Below are positions 3,409 through 12,587 of a stretch of 64,000 bases of DNA, in pieces. The notes beneath the pieces are model-generated. The model was not told the DNA's origin. It saw only the letters and a list, made by a program, of their open reading frames with translations, and ran no database searches. Source of the stretch: Rosistilla ulvae (GTDB lineage Bacteria; Planctomycetota; Planctomycetia; Pirellulales; Pirellulaceae). Each line of letters opens with the position of its first letter. Position 1 is the stretch's first letter. The position numbers and the translations under genes are program-made. The stretch is taken from the NCBI RefSeq assembly GCF_007741475.1, contig NZ_CP036261.1:5953798-6017797 (forward strand), written 5' to 3'.

Positions 3409-3632
3409 AGTGCCCCGGCACGCACCACAGCCGACGGACACCACTTCAAGAACCAAAGCGAGCAAAAATCTCTACCGCGTCCCCTGGATCCCCACACGCT
3501 CAAAAGTCCTGTTGAAGCCGCCCGTCACGAAAGTTTTCATCCAACCCGGGCTCCGCGACCGTCCCAAACGCCACGCCGCACTCACCGCGGCATCCCAAGT
3601 CCACCTCTAAGTGATATCGTATGATGCGTGTT

Positions 3633-3662
3633 CTTGATGGCCTAGGCGAACGGGCCATCAAG
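3633..3662. terminator. 10-bp perfect hairpin downstream of nhaA
   Basis: CTTGATGGCC and GGCCATCAAG form a perfect stem around a 10-nt loop. It lies 225 bp after nhaA and has no T-run, so it may be a terminator or only a palindromic repeat. Confidence 0.3.
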
Positions 3663-4105
3663 GGCATGAACGGTTCTTGACGCGTCAAGCAATAATTGCC
3701 CGCGCTGAGCGGCTTCTTAACAGACACTCAGCGCTGTGCCAGCGATTTCGACCAGATCGCACCAGGCGGGTGCGTCGAGCCAGAATCCATGCAAAATATG
3801 CGGGGGCAAGTCTCGCATATCGTCGCGCATCGGACGCCCATTCCAGTCTGCGAGTGCTGGATAAATCCGGCACAACGCTCGATGCAAAACACGATCTGCA
3901 CCTGCCCAGTATCGATCAACTCATCTCACGTTTGCCGAGACATCTCCAAGTCCTCCAGCGGTCACCCCCGTGAAATACCGTGCCGCCTGCTCTTCCCGCA
4001 GCGCCCGAACCGCAAACATTAAGTACAGCCGACACCAGAGTGGCGATCATTTTGTGGGCGTCCCCAGGGCTAATGACTTTTTCTAACTGCAGCGGCTCAG
4101 GGAAC

Positions 4106-4164
4106 GGTAACCCAACGCGTAAGCGAAGAATTCACTAGGCGTCTCTTATGCGCGTCGGGTTATC
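4106..4164. repeat. 59-bp imperfect palindromic repeat, copy 1
   Basis: It begins GGTAACCCAACGCGTAAGCG and ends with the near-complement GCGCGTCGGGTTATC. A second copy of the same length and ends lies at 28874-28932. Both are intergenic. This is a dispersed REP-like element. Confidence 0.6.
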
Positions 4165-4541
4165 AAGAGTGCCTAACCCCAAACATTAAATAGCCCTGTG
4201 AGTGCCCGGATACTGCCATTCTGTACACGAAGGAATACTCACCGAACGTATCCTAGGGTCGCGTATCCATCACTAAACACCACACCGCTTAGGAGACAAA
4301 CAGATATTACGCTGCATAGCGACCAGTCTTGGGGCAGATCTCCCTATGCCACGCTAAACGCTTCCTCTATAAGCAAAGTGCGTTGCAGTGGAAAGGATTC
4401 AAGCCTTGGAGCTTTCGAGGCATTGTGACGCTTAAATTTGCTATAGATGGAATCACGCACGAGAACCGTTTTCCATGCAACACCCAACGCAATAACATGA
4501 ATTCCGTACGTTGGCGCTGCCCTGCCGAAATTGGGCAAACG

Positions 4542-6995
4542 ATGCGCATACTTCAATGGGTTCTCATTGGCACATACTTGCCATCGGCAATTGCGTTTGG
4601 GCAGGCATTGTCTGTTGGGGACGCGAATTCGTCCGTCGTCACCACTCGCATCGTACCTCTCTACTATTCCCAAGACGTCGCGGAAGTCATGTCATTGGTG
4701 CGAGGGCACTTGCCGGAAAAGGTCGTGCCACCAGTCGATTCCTCAATCGCCGCATTGCAGCAGCTGAGCGCTGAGCGTCAGAAATTGCTCGATCGTCGGA
4801 AAATGCTTTCCGACGATGCGACATCCGGCAGCAACATTCAGGAACCCTTGGCATCGGCGCTCGGAATCGGAAGCGCTGCTGATCCCAAGGATTCTGAGTT
4901 GCAACGGATTGATCGGTCGCTCGCACAGATCAGCGCCAACGAGCAAGCGATTCGCGCCGAAGCATTTAGGCGGGGCAACGAATCGCCAGTGACTACAAAC
5001 AACCAGATGTGGGAACCGAGCGCGAATTCCTCCGACATCACCCAACATGTGCAAATTGGTGTCGCAGGGCAGGGCCGATTGCATCTTCGAGGCCCGTTGG
5101 AGGGCGTCAATGCAATCACTCGAATGCTGCACAAGCTTGATCAACCCGTCGGGCAGGTCAAGATTGGCATCCACGTTCTGCAACTGGATGGCTCCAACGA
5201 TGAAGACATCGAAGACATGCACATTGCTATCAATGAAGTTCTCTATCACGCGCGGTTCATGGCCCGGGAGTCTCAGCAACTGTTTCATTTTGCGTTTCGG
5301 ACCGTTGTCAGCCAGGTACATGCCGAAAATCCAAACAGCTTCGCCGAAGCGTTCTTTTTTGATTCGTGCATCAGCAACTTTCGCGAACTACACAACGCCA
5401 ACAAAGGCGAAATCTCAGTCGAGGCATTTGACTCGCGGGACATCGTTAGCACACTTTTTTTCGTGGCAATCGCTAAGTCTCACGTACGACAAAAGGTTCT
5501 TGCCGAATTCCATCGACTGGTTGCCAACGAATTCCCCCGTTTTCACGAACGGTACCGGATGGCGATGTTAGCGTCGGTGCCAAAGAATCCAGACGCTAGC
5601 GGTTTTCGCATACCGGGCTTCACTTCCAGCGAACCCGACACCCCGACGATCGAAGTTCACGAGCCCGATTTTTCTTTCTCACGAATCACGTCTTACCTTC
5701 AATCACTGGGACAGGACGATGCAGCGGCAAATAGCGTTCAGGTTGCGTTGGTACGTTTTCAACGAGCGAGTATAGCGCTCCAAACCACCGGTGCGGCGAT
5801 TGCGAAAATGCGTGACCATCGAGTGCTTTTTCAAGCCTCACAAACGCGCGATGGTTCCACCACCACAGCTCATCCGATTTCGGGAGAAGTGATGAGCATC
5901 GCGGCCTTTTGCCAACTGACGGATCGAGTCATTCACGAGCGAGAAAAGAAATACTTGGATCATCAAGAAAGCCTCCGAGGCGAAGTGGCAATGCTTGACG
6001 GGCACTTGCGAAGTCTTGCCGAGGCGTTCGAAGAGGATGTTCGACGACAGTTTTATGAGCCTGTCCTCGGGGATCTACGTGGTGCATCGCACGGTTGGAA
6101 GGTGCAGATGGGGCAACTCCAAACGACGACGATCGTTACCAACGACCGGCAGCGAGCACGCGTTAGCCCCGAACAAGTTGCGGTATTGGATCAACCTAAG
6201 CGAGCAATTTTGTTGCAAGAGGGGTTGGAGGTCGCCAACGGTCTGGCCCAGGAAGCGCGTGGCCTCGGCCTGTCCATTGCAGCGCAGACGGCAAGTGAAA
6301 CGATGGTCCCGGGAAGCAGCGGTCTGCTGTCAGCCGCAGGCGTTACGCAGGCGCCAGGTAAACACCTTGAAGCATTGACAACAAAAACCTCGCGTCGGAC
6401 AGTAACCGTTGGGGATGAGATTGATTTGACCCCGGTCATCCAACCAGACGGCACAAGTGTTGCTTTTCATCTGCTCTATACGCATTCGCCTCGTGTCGAA
6501 TCGTCCGACGAAGACGCCTCCAGCACTTCAGGCATTCGACGCCACTTCGTCGAGTCTCAGGTCCATGCACAAAGCCACGACTTCAGCGAAGTCAGTCGAT
6601 TTCGTGTCGCAATTCGCTCTAAGCAACAGGGCAACGGAGTTGCGCTGATGGAGAACATTCCTCTTGTGGGCGGACTGTTCCGTCCACGCGAGAGTCTGGT
6701 GACAACGAGTCAGGAGAACATCATTTTTGCCGATGTCGTCATCTATCCCACATCTCGATCATTAGGTGACAGTTGGCTCGCATTCAAAGACAGCGGCCCA
6801 ATCAACCAACGCAACGAACATCCTGCAGGTGTGCCCGGCTCGCAAGACGTGAATCTGGTGCACTGGGTTGAACGGACTTTGAAACAGCATGCGGAAACCA
6901 CGCTCTTGGTCCCCACCGAAACGTCGCCGACATTGCTTGCATCGCCACCCTCGAGCTACGCACCGCCTTCCGCAAGCAATGGTTTCCGACGTTGA
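4542..6995 (+). CDS. Orphan secretin-like outer-membrane protein
   Basis: Encodes 817 residues from the ATG that starts a clear signal peptide (MRILQWVLIGTYLPSAIAFG). An upstream extension of the frame has no such feature. Residues about 45-135 are charged and helical. At about 182-215 there is a secretin N-domain-like stretch (GPLEGVNAITRMLHKLDQPV, then QVKIGIHVLQLD). Near the C-terminus, from about residue 624, come GDEIDLTPVIQPDG, then ENIPLVGGLFR (about 704) and ENIIFADVVIYPT (about 725). These correspond to the end of the GspD/PilQ secretin domain (V-P-x-L-G-x-x-P-x-x-G-x-L-F-R and N-L-x-I-x-x-x-P). The usual glycine-rich VVLGGL element is not visible, so the pore may be modified. No other type II or IV secretion gene is nearby. 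The stop overlaps the next ATG (TGATG), so it works with the DUF1207 protein. Confidence 0.6.
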   Translation: MRILQWVLIGTYLPSAIAFGQALSVGDANSSVVTTRIVPLYYSQDVAEVMSLVRGHLPEKVVPPVDSSIAALQQLSAERQKLLDRRKMLSDDATSGSNIQEPLASALGIGSAADPKDSELQRIDRSLAQISANEQAIRAEAFRRGNESPVTTNNQMWEPSANSSDITQHVQIGVAGQGRLHLRGPLEGVNAITRMLHKLDQPVGQVKIGIHVLQLDGSNDEDIEDMHIAINEVLYHARFMARESQQLFHFAFRTVVSQVHAENPNSFAEAFFFDSCISNFRELHNANKGEISVEAFDSRDIVSTLFFVAIAKSHVRQKVLAEFHRLVANEFPRFHERYRMAMLASVPKNPDASGFRIPGFTSSEPDTPTIEVHEPDFSFSRITSYLQSLGQDDAAANSVQVALVRFQRASIALQTTGAAIAKMRDHRVLFQASQTRDGSTTTAHPISGEVMSIAAFCQLTDRVIHEREKKYLDHQESLRGEVAMLDGHLRSLAEAFEEDVRRQFYEPVLGDLRGASHGWKVQMGQLQTTTIVTNDRQRARVSPEQVAVLDQPKRAILLQEGLEVANGLAQEARGLGLSIAAQTASETMVPGSSGLLSAAGVTQAPGKHLEALTTKTSRRTVTVGDEIDLTPVIQPDGTSVAFHLLYTHSPRVESSDEDASSTSGIRRHFVESQVHAQSHDFSEVSRFRVAIRSKQQGNGVALMENIPLVGGLFRPRESLVTTSQENIIFADVVIYPTSRSLGDSWLAFKDSGPINQRNEHPAGVPGSQDVNLVHWVERTLKQHAETTLLVPTETSPTLLASPPSSYAPPSASNGFRR

Positions 6996-7972
6996 TGAAG
7001 ACTTGGTACACACGGATTCAACAGTTACGGCGCAGTATTCGAACCCAACGGTCAGAGCAAACGCATGCAATAGGATTCTTGCCGACAACGGGGGTGAAGC
7101 TATTGATTCTCACGCTTGCGTGGGGATGCTTGCTCGATTCAATTCCACTTGCGCGTGCCGATGAATTTGACCCTTTTGCGACGCCGGTGGCTGAGCCGCT
7201 CGTTGTCATGCCGCAATGGGGATGGCACTTTCTTCCCGAGGGATTGATCTATCATCCCTACCTCGCTGGACCGAAAGAATCGCGAACGAGTATCGAACTG
7301 CTGAAGAACGATGATTTTGGCTGGATCTACGATTCTTCGATCGGAGGCCAATGGGGATTCTTACGCGTCGGTTCGGACGATCCTTACTCTCCTACCGGTG
7401 TGCAGTTCGATCTTGAAGCGTCCGCACAAATGCGTCAAACCAACCTTGCCTCCCTCGATCTCCTCACCAGTGATATTCGTGTAGGGTTTCCTGTTTCGTT
7501 TGGGCGTAATAACCATCAAACCAAGCTCGGTGTCTACTTTTTGCGTTCACATCCCACCGACAGTTTGATCGATAGAATTCCCACGCTCCGCAATGAAGAT
7601 TTTTTCCAACGTCAATCGCTCGTGCTCGGACATTCTCGGTACTTTGCTGAGCGATTTCGGTTGTACGGCGAGGCTGGTTATGCCTTTAAGTCGACGATCA
7701 GCAAAAAATGGGAACTCCAGTTTGGTGCTGAATACGCTCCGGTGATGCCAACCAATTGTTTCGGTGCACCTTTCATCGCCGCCAACGCTTACCTCAGGGA
7801 AGAGGTCGATTTCGGTGGGACATTCACATTGCAAGCCGGTTGGGCATGGCGTAAAAAAAATGGACGACTGTTTCGAATCGGCGCTCAGTATGCGAACGGA
7901 ATGAGCAATCAATTCGCGCTCCACGACCGGTACGAGCAACAGCTTGGAATTGGCATATGGCACGATTTCTAG
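6995..7972 (+). CDS. DUF1207 family protein, predicted outer-membrane barrel
   Basis: A 325-residue protein. After a basic N-terminus comes a hydrophobic segment (about 34-50, VKLLILTLAWGCLLDSI) and a cleavage-like LARADEFDP. The mature part shows the DUF1207 pattern: WGWHFLPEGLIYHPYLAGPK, then GWIYDSSIGGQWGFLRVG, then long alternating strands such as LYGEAGYAF, WELQFGAEYAP and TLQAGWAW. It ends in GIGIWHDF, an aromatic C-terminal residue typical of outer-membrane barrels. The family is frequent in planctomycetes and has no known function. Translation is coupled to the secretin-like gene through TGATG, which suggests partners in one envelope complex (inference). Confidence 0.7.
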   Translation: MKTWYTRIQQLRRSIRTQRSEQTHAIGFLPTTGVKLLILTLAWGCLLDSIPLARADEFDPFATPVAEPLVVMPQWGWHFLPEGLIYHPYLAGPKESRTSIELLKNDDFGWIYDSSIGGQWGFLRVGSDDPYSPTGVQFDLEASAQMRQTNLASLDLLTSDIRVGFPVSFGRNNHQTKLGVYFLRSHPTDSLIDRIPTLRNEDFFQRQSLVLGHSRYFAERFRLYGEAGYAFKSTISKKWELQFGAEYAPVMPTNCFGAPFIAANAYLREEVDFGGTFTLQAGWAWRKKNGRLFRIGAQYANGMSNQFALHDRYEQQLGIGIWHDF

Positions 7973-8354: not shown

Positions 8355-11309
8355 ATGGATCGAACGACCCGCGACTCCGCGGCCACTGTCGTCAGATGGG
8401 GGCTTTTTGTTTGGCTGGCTTGCACGCTGCAGCTGAGTTTATCCGCGGATCAACCGCTGGCGAAGACCGATCCTCGCCCCGCTTGGACCACTTCGCAAAT
8501 CTCCGGATCGCCTGAACCGCCACTTCCCTATACGACCGAGCGCGCCTTCCCGTCGCTCTCCTTCAATCGCTGTTTGGATATCACCGCCGCCCCCGGCAGC
8601 GACCGACTGTTTGTCGTCGAGGAACGGGGTAAAGTCTTTTCGTTTCCGAATCGGTCGGATGTGGAATCGGCTGATCTCGTGATCGATTTGGCGAAAGCGA
8701 TCCCCGGAGTTAGCCGCGTCTATTCGCTGACCTTCCATCCCGATTTTGAAACCAATCGCTACTGCTACGTCTGTTACATCAAAAAGGCTGGTGAGCCCGA
8801 TGGCACGCACGTGGCTCGGTTTAAAATGACCGACGCCGACCCGCCGACGATCGATGCGGCCAGCGAAACGACTCTGCTCACCTGGCTCTCCGGCGGCCAC
8901 AACGGCTGCTGTTTGAAGTTTGGCCCCGACGGCTGTCTCTACATTTCCACCGGCGATGGCGGTCCAGCCAACCCGCCCGATCCGGAACACGCCGGGCAGG
9001 ATGTCAGCAATTTGCTGTCCTCAATTTTGCGGATCGACGTCGACCAAACGACCGCAGACCGGAACTATCAGATCCCGCCCGACAATCCGTTTGTCGATCT
9101 CGCCGGCGCGCGAGGCGAAGTCTGGGCGTACGGTTTGCGAAATCCGTGGCGGATGAGTTTCGATTCCGACACGGGCGACCTGTGGGTTGGCGATGTCGGC
9201 TGGGAACTTTGGGAGATGCTCAATCGCATCGAGCGCGGCGGAAACTATGGTTGGTCGGTTCTAGAGGGTTCGCACCCGTCGAATCCCGAACGGAAACGCG
9301 GTCCGACACCGATCCTGCCACCGACGATCGAACATTCGCACACCGAATCCTCTTCGATCACCGACGGCCTGACCTACGTCGGATCTCGGCTGCCCGAGCT
9401 CCGCGGCACGCACATCTACGGCGACTACGACACCGGAAAAATCTGGGGCTTCCGCTATGAAGCGGGCCAGGTTGTCGAGCACCGAGAACTAGCCGACACC
9501 ACGCATCGGATCGTTTCGTTTGGCGAAGATAACAACAACGCGATGTACCTGCTGGACCACACTGCCGGGACGATCCAGCGGCTGGTCGCCAATCAGCCCA
9601 CCGAGCAACCGAGCCGCTTTCCGCGAAAGCTCAGCGAAACCGGGCTCTTCGATTCCGTTGTCGATCAAACCCCGATGCCGGGCGTAATCCCCTATTCGAT
9701 CGCCGCCCAACCGTGGGCCGATCATGCAGTCGCCCAGCGGTTTGTCGCAGTTCCCGGCAACGGGGTGATCGAAACCAAGCCAAAAACTTGGGCATTTCCG
9801 ACCGGGACAGTCCTCGTTAAAACGCTGTCGCTCGACTTGGAACAAGGCAACCCCGCGACGCGGCAACACGTCGAAACGCAGATCTTGCACTACGATGGCA
9901 TCGATTGGTTGCCGTATACCTACGCCTGGAACCAGCAGCAGACCGACGCCACGTTGGTCCCCAGCGATGGCGATCAACGCGCGTTCGAAATCGTCAACGC
10001 GGCATCGCCCGGCGGTCTGCGGAACCAGACATGGCGATTTGCCGGGCGAGCCGAATGCCAGCGATGCCACAACTCGTGGTCGGGTCCGCCGTTGGGCTTT
10101 AACACTCTGCAATTGAACTGCGATCTCGATGACGGCGACGCCCCTGTTTCGCAGCTGGATCGACTGGCCGAGATCGGATTGATCGACAAACCGATCGATC
10201 CTAAAGATCGCGAAGGCTTAGTCGACCCAAGCGATACGTCGGCGGAGACCGATCCCCGAGCCCGAGCTTATCTTCAAGCGAATTGCGCCCATTGCCATCG
10301 CCAGCATGCGGGGGGCGCTGTGTTGTCGAAGATGCATTCCGACATTCCCCTTGCCGAAACGAATATGCTCGACGCCCGCCCATCGCAGGGAACGTTTGGC
10401 ATCCATTCGGCGCATGTGATCACGCCCGGCGATCCGCTGCGTTCGGTACTTTGGTACCGGATGGCGAAGCTCGGCAGCGGCCGGATGCCTCATATCGGCA
10501 GCAGCGAAGTCGACGTGGCGGGGCTGGCATTGATCGAAGATTGGATCGGGCAACTGCCGCCAAGTGAGTCGTCTTCCGATCCGGCAGCGCTCCGGCGCCA
10601 AGCCGATGCGTTGGCGGCACTTGCGGAATTGGAACGGTCGGCTGAAACGGAAGCTGACGCCGAAGCGTCGCTCGAAAAACTGTTGTCGACAACCGAAGGG
10701 GGCCTGCTGTTGATGAGGTCGTTGCAGCAGAAGTCGCTTCCCGAGGCGGCCGCTTCGCTGGCGATCGCTCGCGCTGCGAAGCATCCTGACGCCGGTATCC
10801 GCGATCTCTTTGAACGCTTTCTGCCAGCGGACCAACGCGTGGAGCGATTGGGCAATGTCGTTGCGACCGATCAAATCCTGGCGTTCTCGGGCGATGCAGA
10901 TCGCGGCCGATTGGTCTTCTTCGAAACCGCAGGTGTATCGTGCAAGAACTGCCATCGGATCGGTGACACCGGAACGGTGGTCGGTCCCGACCTGACAACG
11001 ATCGGCAAAAAACTCTCCGCCGCCGAATTGCTCGAAAGCATCCTCGAACCCTCTAAGCGAATCGACGCCCCCTACCTGACCTACCTGTTGGAAACAATCG
11101 ATGGCCGCGTCTTAAGTGGCCTGCTGGTCGATAGGGATGACAACCAGGTGACGCTTCGCGAAGCGACCGGTACCGTTGTTGTCGTCGCTGCCGACGATAT
11201 CGAACAACTGGTCCCGCAGCGGAAGTCGCTAATGCCCGAACTGTTGGTCCGCGACCTCACCTCTCAACAGGTCGCCGACCTGTTGTCCTACCTGATTTCG
11301 TTAAAGTAA
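8355..11309 (+). CDS. PQQ-type sugar dehydrogenase fused to c-type cytochrome domains
   Basis: The 984-residue product starts at the ATG with an AAGGA ribosome binding site and a signal peptide (about 1-35). Residues about 60-420 form a glucose/sorbosone dehydrogenase six-bladed propeller, with SGGHNGCCLKFGPDGCLYIS, GDGGPANPPDPEHAGQD, YGLRNPWRMSFD and GGNYGWSVLEG. Three CxxCH heme motifs follow: CQRCH (about 567), CAHCH (about 644) and CKNCH (about 862). The last sits in the planctomycete heme-binding domain that ends LLSYLISLK. Likely role: periplasmic oxidation of a sugar with electrons passed to attached hemes. It may form an operon with the Tat-exported protein 30 bp downstream. The substrate is unknown. 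Confidence 0.85.
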   Translation: MDRTTRDSAATVVRWGLFVWLACTLQLSLSADQPLAKTDPRPAWTTSQISGSPEPPLPYTTERAFPSLSFNRCLDITAAPGSDRLFVVEERGKVFSFPNRSDVESADLVIDLAKAIPGVSRVYSLTFHPDFETNRYCYVCYIKKAGEPDGTHVARFKMTDADPPTIDAASETTLLTWLSGGHNGCCLKFGPDGCLYISTGDGGPANPPDPEHAGQDVSNLLSSILRIDVDQTTADRNYQIPPDNPFVDLAGARGEVWAYGLRNPWRMSFDSDTGDLWVGDVGWELWEMLNRIERGGNYGWSVLEGSHPSNPERKRGPTPILPPTIEHSHTESSSITDGLTYVGSRLPELRGTHIYGDYDTGKIWGFRYEAGQVVEHRELADTTHRIVSFGEDNNNAMYLLDHTAGTIQRLVANQPTEQPSRFPRKLSETGLFDSVVDQTPMPGVIPYSIAAQPWADHAVAQRFVAVPGNGVIETKPKTWAFPTGTVLVKTLSLDLEQGNPATRQHVETQILHYDGIDWLPYTYAWNQQQTDATLVPSDGDQRAFEIVNAASPGGLRNQTWRFAGRAECQRCHNSWSGPPLGFNTLQLNCDLDDGDAPVSQLDRLAEIGLIDKPIDPKDREGLVDPSDTSAETDPRARAYLQANCAHCHRQHAGGAVLSKMHSDIPLAETNMLDARPSQGTFGIHSAHVITPGDPLRSVLWYRMAKLGSGRMPHIGSSEVDVAGLALIEDWIGQLPPSESSSDPAALRRQADALAALAELERSAETEADAEASLEKLLSTTEGGLLLMRSLQQKSLPEAAASLAIARAAKHPDAGIRDLFERFLPADQRVERLGNVVATDQILAFSGDADRGRLVFFETAGVSCKNCHRIGDTGTVVGPDLTTIGKKLSAAELLESILEPSKRIDAPYLTYLLETIDGRVLSGLLVDRDDNQVTLREATGTVVVVAADDIEQLVPQRKSLMPELLVRDLTSQQVADLLSYLISLK

Positions 11310-11339
11310 TCCCCGCCTCAGAAATCAACGAGTGGAATC

Positions 11340-12587
11340 ATGCCATCTCCATCGAAGCCCACGCGTCGAGCCTTCTTAGCCAGCACGGCGATCGCAGCCG
11401 CCAGCAGCCCGTGGTTGAACGTCGCCACCGCCGAAACGCCCACGGTAAAAACAAAATCGGTCGCGGCGGTCCTCACCGCATACGAACACGGTTTGCACGC
11501 CGACGTTCTGATCGGCAAGATCCTAGAAGGTTGGAAACAGGACGGCGGACCGGGGCCGCGTTTGACGCTCGCCTCGATGTACGTCGACCAGTTCACCGAT
11601 AGGGACATGGCTCGCGGGCTCTCTCAAAAATATGGCTTTCCGATTTTTGAAACGATCGAAGAAGCTGTCACCGTCGGCGGCAACACGATCCCCGTCGATG
11701 GCGTGATCAGCATTGGGGAGCACGGCGATTATCCGTGGAACGACAAAAAGCAGCATCTTTATCCACGCCGTCGCTTTTTCAAAGAGATCACCGATACGTT
11801 TGTGAAATACGATCGTGTCGTCCCGGTCTTCAACGACAAGCATCTCGGTCCGGTCTGGAAAGATGCGAAATGGATGTACGACCGCGCCGTCGAACTGAAC
11901 ATTCCTTTTATGGCGGGTTCTTCGATGGCGGTCGGCTACCGCACGCCCGAGATCTCCGTCCCGCCGGGCTGCCCCATCGAAGCCGCAGTGGGCATCGGGT
12001 ACTCCGGTCTGGACATCTACGGCAGTCACGCGTTGGAATTTTTCCAGTGCCATGTCGAACAGCGACCCGGCGCCGAGCAGGGCGTTCGCTGGGTGCAGTG
12101 CCTGCAAGGCGATGCGGTCTGGCAGACGCTGGACGATGGCTTGATCAGCCAAGATCTTTTTGATGCCGCGTTGGCCGCGATCGATCATCGCGACGGCGAT
12201 GTGCGGCAGAGCGACGACGCCACGTTGTTCCTGTTCCAATATGCCGACGGCCTGTTGGGAGCTCTCTTTATGCTGCCGACCTACGCCCGCGGGACGTCGG
12301 TTGCGCTGCAAGTCGCTGGCAAAACGGAGCCGCTTGCGACGCGGTTCGACGAGCGAACGGAACCGCGTTATCCGCACTTCGCCTGGCTGCTCAAAGGGAT
12401 CGAAACGATGATCCACACCGGCCGGCCGACCTATCCCGTCGAGCGGACGCTGCTGACCAGCGGGATCTTGGATCGCGCCCTCACCTCGCTGGCCGCAGGG
12501 CAAACCAAACGGATGACTCCCGAACTGGAGATCGCTTACCAACCGGCAAATTACGGCCACGCTCCCCTCCCGCGACTCGGCGGTTAG
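11340..12587 (+). CDS. Tat-exported protein of unknown function
   Basis: This gene encodes 415 residues. The N-terminus carries a twin-arginine signal (TRRAFLASTAIAAASSPWL), so it is exported folded, which often goes with a bound cofactor. The mature part reads SVAAVLTAYEHGLHADVLIG, then GVISIGEHGDYP, VVPVFNDKHLGPVWKDA and IPFMAGSSMAVGYR. These are alternating strand-helix units that resemble a Rossmann-type oxidoreductase fold, but no clear nucleotide motif is visible. It follows the sugar dehydrogenase gene by 30 bp on the same strand, so shared transcription and a role in the same oxidation pathway are plausible. The function is not established. Confidence 0.75.
   Translation: MPSPSKPTRRAFLASTAIAAASSPWLNVATAETPTVKTKSVAAVLTAYEHGLHADVLIGKILEGWKQDGGPGPRLTLASMYVDQFTDRDMARGLSQKYGFPIFETIEEAVTVGGNTIPVDGVISIGEHGDYPWNDKKQHLYPRRRFFKEITDTFVKYDRVVPVFNDKHLGPVWKDAKWMYDRAVELNIPFMAGSSMAVGYRTPEISVPPGCPIEAAVGIGYSGLDIYGSHALEFFQCHVEQRPGAEQGVRWVQCLQGDAVWQTLDDGLISQDLFDAALAAIDHRDGDVRQSDDATLFLFQYADGLLGALFMLPTYARGTSVALQVAGKTEPLATRFDERTEPRYPHFAWLLKGIETMIHTGRPTYPVERTLLTSGILDRALTSLAAGQTKRMTPELEIAYQPANYGHAPLPRLGG

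What the first reader, a model, noticed from the sequence alone, without database searches (positions are those of the whole stretch)
4542..7972. Orphan secretin-like protein translationally coupled to a DUF1207 barrel
The first gene shows secretin N-domain and C-terminal elements (ENIPLVGGLFR and ENIIFADVVIYPT), but the usual VVLGGL part is not visible and there are no secretion-system neighbours. Its stop overlaps the ATG of a DUF1207 protein that looks like an outer-membrane barrel. A two-part envelope assembly with a modified secretin and a barrel partner would be new; both families lack a known role. The long gene-poor leader and less GC-rich look suggest a separate unit.
Basis: partly seen in the sequence, partly recalled or inferred. 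Interest (0 to 1): 0.65.

Follow-up and report, generated by a model that had tools for sequence, protein, structure and literature searches.

The report
Divergent secretin paired with degenerate barrel
Next to each other in a planctomycete genome lie a gene for an unusual secretin (the kind of protein that forms large ring-shaped pores in bacterial outer membranes) and a gene for an outer-membrane barrel that has lost what looks like an enzyme active site; the pairing recurs in a second genus, which makes a joint role testable but does not prove one.

Summary
Window 4542-6995 encodes an 817-aa secretin-fold protein: Pfam Secretin matches 24 of 25 family members and all 40 significant Foldseek hits are secretins. 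It departs from canonical secretins by helical insertions (in the N-domain, and about 300 residues after the first barrel strand) and a replaced VVLGGL hairpin, but keeps the membrane-contact loop. Its stop overlaps the ATG of a DUF1207 protein (TGATG) in all three species of the genus. DUF1207 is predicted as a 12-strand outer-membrane barrel with OMPLA as best fold match. In 46 other DUF1207 proteins an OMPLA-like H-x-S...N motif is (nearly) invariant; the window protein belongs to a 10-member clade that lost it.

The secretin family was found only in planctomycetes. A giant form (about 1500-2050 aa) has its own conserved partner genes, never DUF1207. The short form occurs in five lineages; DUF1207 adjoins it in two (this genus head-to-tail, another genus divergently), both times from the degenerate clade. 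Three lineages lack it. The pairing recurs but is optional, so a two-part outer-membrane assembly is plausible and unproven. New variant of a known kind.

The parts
3409..4541 (+). gene-poor leader; the last 207 bases before the ATG are 97% identical in the sister species
   Evidence: only short ORFs; no Rfam family; no sigma-70-like site; flank comparison
4542..6995 (+). divergent secretin, short form, 817 aa, signal-like N-terminus; an in-frame ATG at 4497 is an alternative start
4638..4703 (+). first half of an N3-type secretin N-domain (aa 33-54, TTRIVPLYYSQDVAEVMSLVRG region)
   Evidence: model strand and helix; VIA alignments to secretins begin at residues 28-34
4710..5006 (+). helical (coiled-coil-like) insertion inside the N-domain, aa 57-155; nearly absent in the G478 relative
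5052..5192 (+). second half of the N-domain and first barrel strand, aa 171-217
5193..6095 (+). all-helical insertion of about 300 residues (aa 218-518) after barrel strand 1; 540-670 residues in the giant form
6096..6746 (+). rest of the secretin barrel domain, aa 519-735; Pfam Secretin match at 6387-6728
6636..6686 (+). retained membrane-contact loop GVALMENIPLVGGLFRP (aa 699-715), equivalent of the secretin amphipathic helical loop
   Evidence: conserved columns, pattern scan, role in other secretins from PMC6532946
6993..6997 (+). TGATG stop/start overlap
   Evidence: identical in three species
6995..7972 (+). DUF1207 protein, 325 aa, signal-like N-terminus ending ARA|DE, C-terminal F
7286..7966 (+). 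predicted 12-strand outer-membrane barrel, aa 98-324
   Evidence: pLDDT 84.9; best match OMPLA Z 18.2
7538..7615 (+). degenerate site: the family's H-x-S-S-H-x-G-D-E ... N ... D reads F-x-R-S-H-x-T-D-S ... F ... Q here (aa 182-207)
   Evidence: column counts, 10 clade members against 46 others

Best explanation
The first gene encodes an exported secretin-type subunit that most likely oligomerises through its N-domain and barrel domain into a ring and contacts the outer membrane by the retained IPxxGxLFR loop (shown: fold and motif; inferred: oligomer and membrane insertion). A large helical domain has replaced the segment after barrel strand 1, where canonical secretins carry part of their gate, so the pore is probably plugged or regulated by helices instead of the usual gate (inferred). 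The second gene, translated from an overlapping start, makes a 12-strand outer-membrane barrel of OMPLA fold from a DUF1207 clade that lost the putative catalytic residues (shown: fold prediction, residue loss; inferred: no activity). The barrel most likely serves as a non-catalytic outer-membrane accessory of the secretin ring, for example an anchor or assembly aid in the place of a pilotin (inferred from gene order only). Cargo is unknown, and no secretion machinery is encoded at the locus.
For: Secretin fold: 24 of 25 members match PF00263, profile comparison with canonical secretins E 9e-7, 40 of 40 Foldseek hits at E<=0.001, first 27 VIA rows, Z 9.3-12.6. Barrel: pLDDT 84.9 and 12 strands, OMPLA Z 18.2 at 3.2 A over 199 residues, terminal F/Y in all 52 rows that reach the end. 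Pairing: TGATG overlap kept in three species under purifying selection; both genes share an unusual GC3; a second genus, G429, has a DUF1207 of the same clade 276 bp upstream, divergent.
Against: Three of five short-form lineages have no adjacent DUF1207 and six lineages with this DUF1207 clade have no short-form secretin. Genus-level co-occurrence is not significant (2 shared of 68; p about 0.1 by hand). The G429 case is one contig of a fragmented assembly. The secretin model is only moderate (pLDDT 61). No complex was modelled and no experiment exists.
Confidence: 0.4

Rival explanations
1. A true but divergent secretin whose DUF1207 neighbour is only an operon passenger: both reach the outer membrane independently and do not act together.
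For: The two genes occur without each other in most carriers; the giant secretin form has other conserved partners and never DUF1207.
Against: Adjacency in two genera in different orientations, both times with the same degenerate DUF1207 clade; by my estimate (2 DUF1207 genes among about 5,500) the G429 adjacency has a chance below 1 in 1,000; translational overlap in three species.
Confidence: 0.35
2. A secretin-derived ring or scaffold that no longer forms a pore: the gate region and the VVLGGL hairpin were lost, and the helices turn it into a structural envelope protein.
For: Helical insertion of 300 (short) to 670 (giant) residues in the barrel domain and replacement of the hairpin; no secretion genes nearby.
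Against: The barrel-domain strands and the membrane-contact loop are conserved across the family, which argues for an outer-membrane ring.
Confidence: 0.2
3. The first protein is not a secretin; the ENIPLVGGLFR resemblance is accidental.
For: The single-sequence Pfam score (20.4) is under the curated cut-off of 27.5; phmmer against the PDB finds no secretin.
Against: Family-level Pfam, profile comparison and fold searches agree on secretins alone.
Confidence: 0.05

Closest known systems
Secretins (PF00263: GspD/PulD, InvG, PilQ, RcpA, pIV)
   Same: N3-type domain plus barrel domain, conserved membrane-contact loop, exported
   Different: Helical insertions in the N-domain and after barrel strand 1, VVLGGL hairpin replaced, no secretion or pilus genes nearby, below the Pfam cut-off as a single sequence
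Giant planctomycete secretin family (about 1500-2050 aa, unnamed; defined here)
   Same: Shares the N-domain, both insertion sites and the barrel core (25-30% identity); sister clade
   Different: Has an extra N-terminal region, longer insertions and two conserved partner genes; never beside DUF1207
DUF1207 (PF06727)
   Same: Full-length match, same predicted barrel
   Different: The window's clade lost the otherwise invariant H-x-S...N...D motif
Outer membrane phospholipase A (OMPLA, PldA, PF02253)
   Same: 12-strand barrel, best fold match (Z 18.2); ordinary DUF1207 has H-x-S at the end of strand 5 and N before strand 6, as in the OMPLA triad
   Different: No significant sequence-profile match; the window protein lacks H, S and N and is not expected to be a phospholipase

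Membership tests
Secretin superfamily (PF00263) | sequence-profile homology in the barrel domain | tested here: met
   24 of 25 members match, best E 4.3e-6; hhalign E 9e-7 to canonical secretins. The single window sequence is below the curated cut-off
Secretin superfamily (PF00263) | secretin fold (N-domain plus barrel domain) | tested here: met
   40 of 40 Foldseek hits and the top 27 VIA rows are secretins; model confidence moderate
Secretin superfamily (PF00263) | membrane-contact amphipathic loop (VPxLxxIPxxGxLF) | tested here: met
   GVALMENIPLVGGLFRP; conserved in the family
Secretin superfamily (PF00263) | VVLGGL hairpin | tested here: not met
   replaced by FSEVSRFRVAI; family consensus LREVSRYxVAL. 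A typical rather than strictly defining feature: one of five canonical secretins of this genome did not match the simple pattern either
Secretin superfamily (PF00263) | homo-oligomeric ring in the outer membrane | not testable with these tools
   no multimer prediction or experiment available
Type II/III/IV secretion or pilus system | machinery genes next to the secretin | tested here: not met
   none among the neighbours tested; the giant form also lies outside such clusters
DUF1207 (PF06727) | profile match over the curated cut-off | tested here: met
   40.4 bits against 22
DUF1207 (PF06727) | invariant H-x-S...H..DE...N...D motif (found here in 46 other members) | tested here: not met
   H182F, S184R, N203F, D207Q in the window protein
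OMPLA / PldA (PF02253) | 12-strand OMPLA-type barrel | tested here: met
   Z 17.6-18.2 to six OMPLA entries, next families about 15
OMPLA / PldA (PF02253) | His-x-Ser...Asn catalytic residues | tested here: not met
   absent in the window protein; present at the topologically equivalent place in ordinary DUF1207
OMPLA / PldA (PF02253) | sequence-profile homology | tested here: inconclusive
   hhalign probability 27%, out of register at the motif, with a shallow OMPLA profile; no PF02253 match among 56 members

The most novel reading that the evidence does not exclude
A short-form planctomycete secretin with a helical gate domain works together with a catalytically dead OMPLA-type barrel as a two-component outer-membrane complex, the barrel having been recruited from an outer-membrane lipase family (DUF1207).
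Probability: 0.25. Interest if true: 0.75.

Novelty: new variant of a known kind. Interest (0 to 1): 0.52.

Why it matters
Secretins are known as the ring pores of secretion and pilus machines. A family in which the segment after the first barrel strand is replaced by 300-670 helical residues, outside any such machine at the loci seen, and with its own conserved partners in its giant form, would widen what this fold is used for. Planctomycetes take macromolecules across their outer membrane by an uncharacterised route and carry unexplained crateriform outer-membrane structures (PMC5394234), so unassigned large outer-membrane complexes in this phylum are worth naming; no link to those structures is shown here. 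Separately, fold plus motif turn DUF1207, a family without a paper in the library searched, into a testable candidate outer-membrane lipase.

Tried and rejected
A PDB sequence search with the single protein gave nothing useful, and with the family profile mainly repeat and coiled-coil noise with weak secretin hits. Crateriform pits as the function: rejected as unsupported, because the family is in only 20 of 397 genomes of the order and 36 of 241 of the family. Rfam and promoter scans of the leader: nothing. DUF1207 as a classical OMPLA by sequence: not supported. A PF03372 protein as a general neighbour of the degenerate DUF1207 clade: in two lineages only. An earlier, smaller tree put the G429 and window DUF1207 in one clade of six; with more members they fall on two branches of a clade of ten, so a single ancestral pairing is possible but not shown. 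The helical insertions were not folded alone, so known folds for them are not excluded.

Full report
WHAT IS THERE. The window lies in a complete 7.48-Mb chromosome of a planctomycete (my reading from PSCyt1/DUF1549/DUF1553/DUF1501 neighbours). Two co-directional genes, 4542-6995 and 6995-7972, overlap by one base (TGATG). The overlap, frames and lengths are the same in the two other species of the genus (95-97% aa identity, dN/dS 0.16-0.34). Both genes have low third-position GC (0.57 and 0.53; most convincing neighbours 0.66-0.76), which fits joint acquisition (inference). The leader 3409-4541 is gene-poor, and no RNA family or promoter-like site was found in it. The neighbouring genes tested are not secretion genes.

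THE FIRST PROTEIN IS A DIVERGENT SECRETIN. Alone it scores below the Pfam cut-off (20.4 bits against 27.5). With relatives the case is strong: 24 of 25 members match PF00263, best E 4.3e-6; a profile comparison with five canonical secretins of the same genome gives E 9e-7 and 91% probability; and the AlphaFold model hits secretins and nothing else at E<=0.001 (40 of 40), with VIA-align Z up to 12.6 and the first 27 rows all secretins. Caveats: the model is moderate (pLDDT 61), TM-scores are low and rmsd is high.

ANATOMY. A signal-like start; the first half of an N3-type domain (33-54); a helical insertion (57-155), nearly absent in G478; the second half of the domain and the first barrel strand (171-217); an all-helical insertion of about 300 residues (218-518); and the rest of the barrel domain (519-735) with the loop GVALMENIPLVGGLFRP. 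In type II secretins this amphipathic loop is the most conserved region and is thought to start contact with the outer membrane (PMC6532946).

THE FAMILY. It is in 20 of 397 genomes of the order, 36 of 241 of the taxonomic family and, in a sample of 392 of the phylum, clearly only in one further family of the same class (hits there near E 1e-3 are probably ordinary secretins). Two clades have full support (long branches, so the root is unsure). The giant form (about 1500-2050 aa) has an extra N-terminal region and an insertion of 540-670 residues after strand 1. In all 16 giant-form loci inspected, a conserved unnamed gene related to a 263-aa reference lies beside it, in most also a second unnamed gene, and DUF1207 in none. 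Among 40 relatives the 263-aa gene occurs in exactly the three genomes that carry the giant form. The short form (about 750-860 aa) occurs in five lineages: this genus, G077, G478, G429, and a decayed copy in G010.

THE SECOND PROTEIN. DUF1207, E 2.4e-10. The model is confident (pLDDT 84.9): 12 strands over residues 98-324, with a terminal aromatic residue as in outer-membrane barrels (F/Y in all 52 rows that reach the end). The best fold match is OMPLA, Z 17.6-18.2, above the next families at about 15. In 46 of 46 DUF1207 proteins outside the window's clade H182, S184, H186, D189 and E190 (window numbering) are invariant, and N203 and [DE]207 hold in 45. They lie at the end of strand 5 and just before strand 6, where OMPLA has His142-x-Ser144 and Asn156 (triad from PMC5043575; strand places in OMPLA are my reading of the sequence). 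A profile comparison with OMPLA was not significant and out of register, so shared descent or chemistry is a hypothesis (I give it about 0.6). The window protein belongs to a fully supported clade of ten in which H182 is F in 10 of 10, and S184, N203 and the acidic 207 are lost in 10 of 10. The other two DUF1207 genes of the same genome keep the motif.

DO THEY BELONG TOGETHER? For: head-to-tail overlap in three species; in G429, another genus, a DUF1207 of the same degenerate clade lies 276 bp upstream of a short-form secretin and divergent from it. With two DUF1207 genes among roughly 5,500 genes such adjacency has a chance below 1 in 1,000 (my estimate). Against: G077, G478 and the G010 remnant have no DUF1207 beside the short secretin (in G077 the contig ends about 760 bases downstream, but that genome has no DUF1207 match to P0002 at all); the degenerate clade occurs in six lineages without a short secretin; genus-level co-occurrence is not significant (8 and 5 carriers among 68 genera, 2 shared, p about 0.1, hand calculation). 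The linkage is recurrent but optional.

VERDICT. Observation confirmed. The most striking points were not in the finding: the large helical insertion, the giant sister form with its own conserved partners, and the loss of an OMPLA-like motif in exactly the DUF1207 clade that pairs with the secretin.

Noticed in passing
DUF1207 family at large: alignment A6, e.g. L024 9297-10328 and L054 1498-2544 (two other copies in the window's own genome): Ordinary DUF1207 proteins have an invariant H-x-S-[SA]-H-x-[GA]-D-E...N...[DE] motif on an OMPLA-like barrel: candidate outer-membrane lipases. Sequence-profile comparison with OMPLA was not significant.
   Followed up: partly
L018, L019, L021, L087-L093, L132-L135, L194, L195: A conserved unnamed module in planctomycetes: giant secretin (about 1500-2050 aa) next to a gene of about 260 aa, and mostly a second one of about 205-340 aa; neither small gene that was tested matches Pfam.
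   Followed up: partly
L020 9785-11403 (G010): Decayed short-form secretin: the N-terminal piece is followed directly by a piece matching residues 472-690, then unrelated sequence; the same genome also holds a giant form.
   Followed up: partly
L189 5289-8322 (G264) and L190 974-3964 (G403): In two genera the same degenerate DUF1207 clade lies beside a PF03372 (endonuclease/exonuclease/phosphatase) protein, 56% identical between the two.
   Followed up: partly
L086 about 11030-11350 (G077): Downstream of the short-form secretin lie several copies of a repeat with CCCTTCCAAAAGGTGCCACCCACATTT, seen by eye in the sequence.
   Followed up: no
L130 5232-7067 and L131 6528-7386 (G429): G429 seems to hold two closely similar short-form secretin copies (or strain variants), each cut by a contig end; only one shows its upstream DUF1207.
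   Followed up: no
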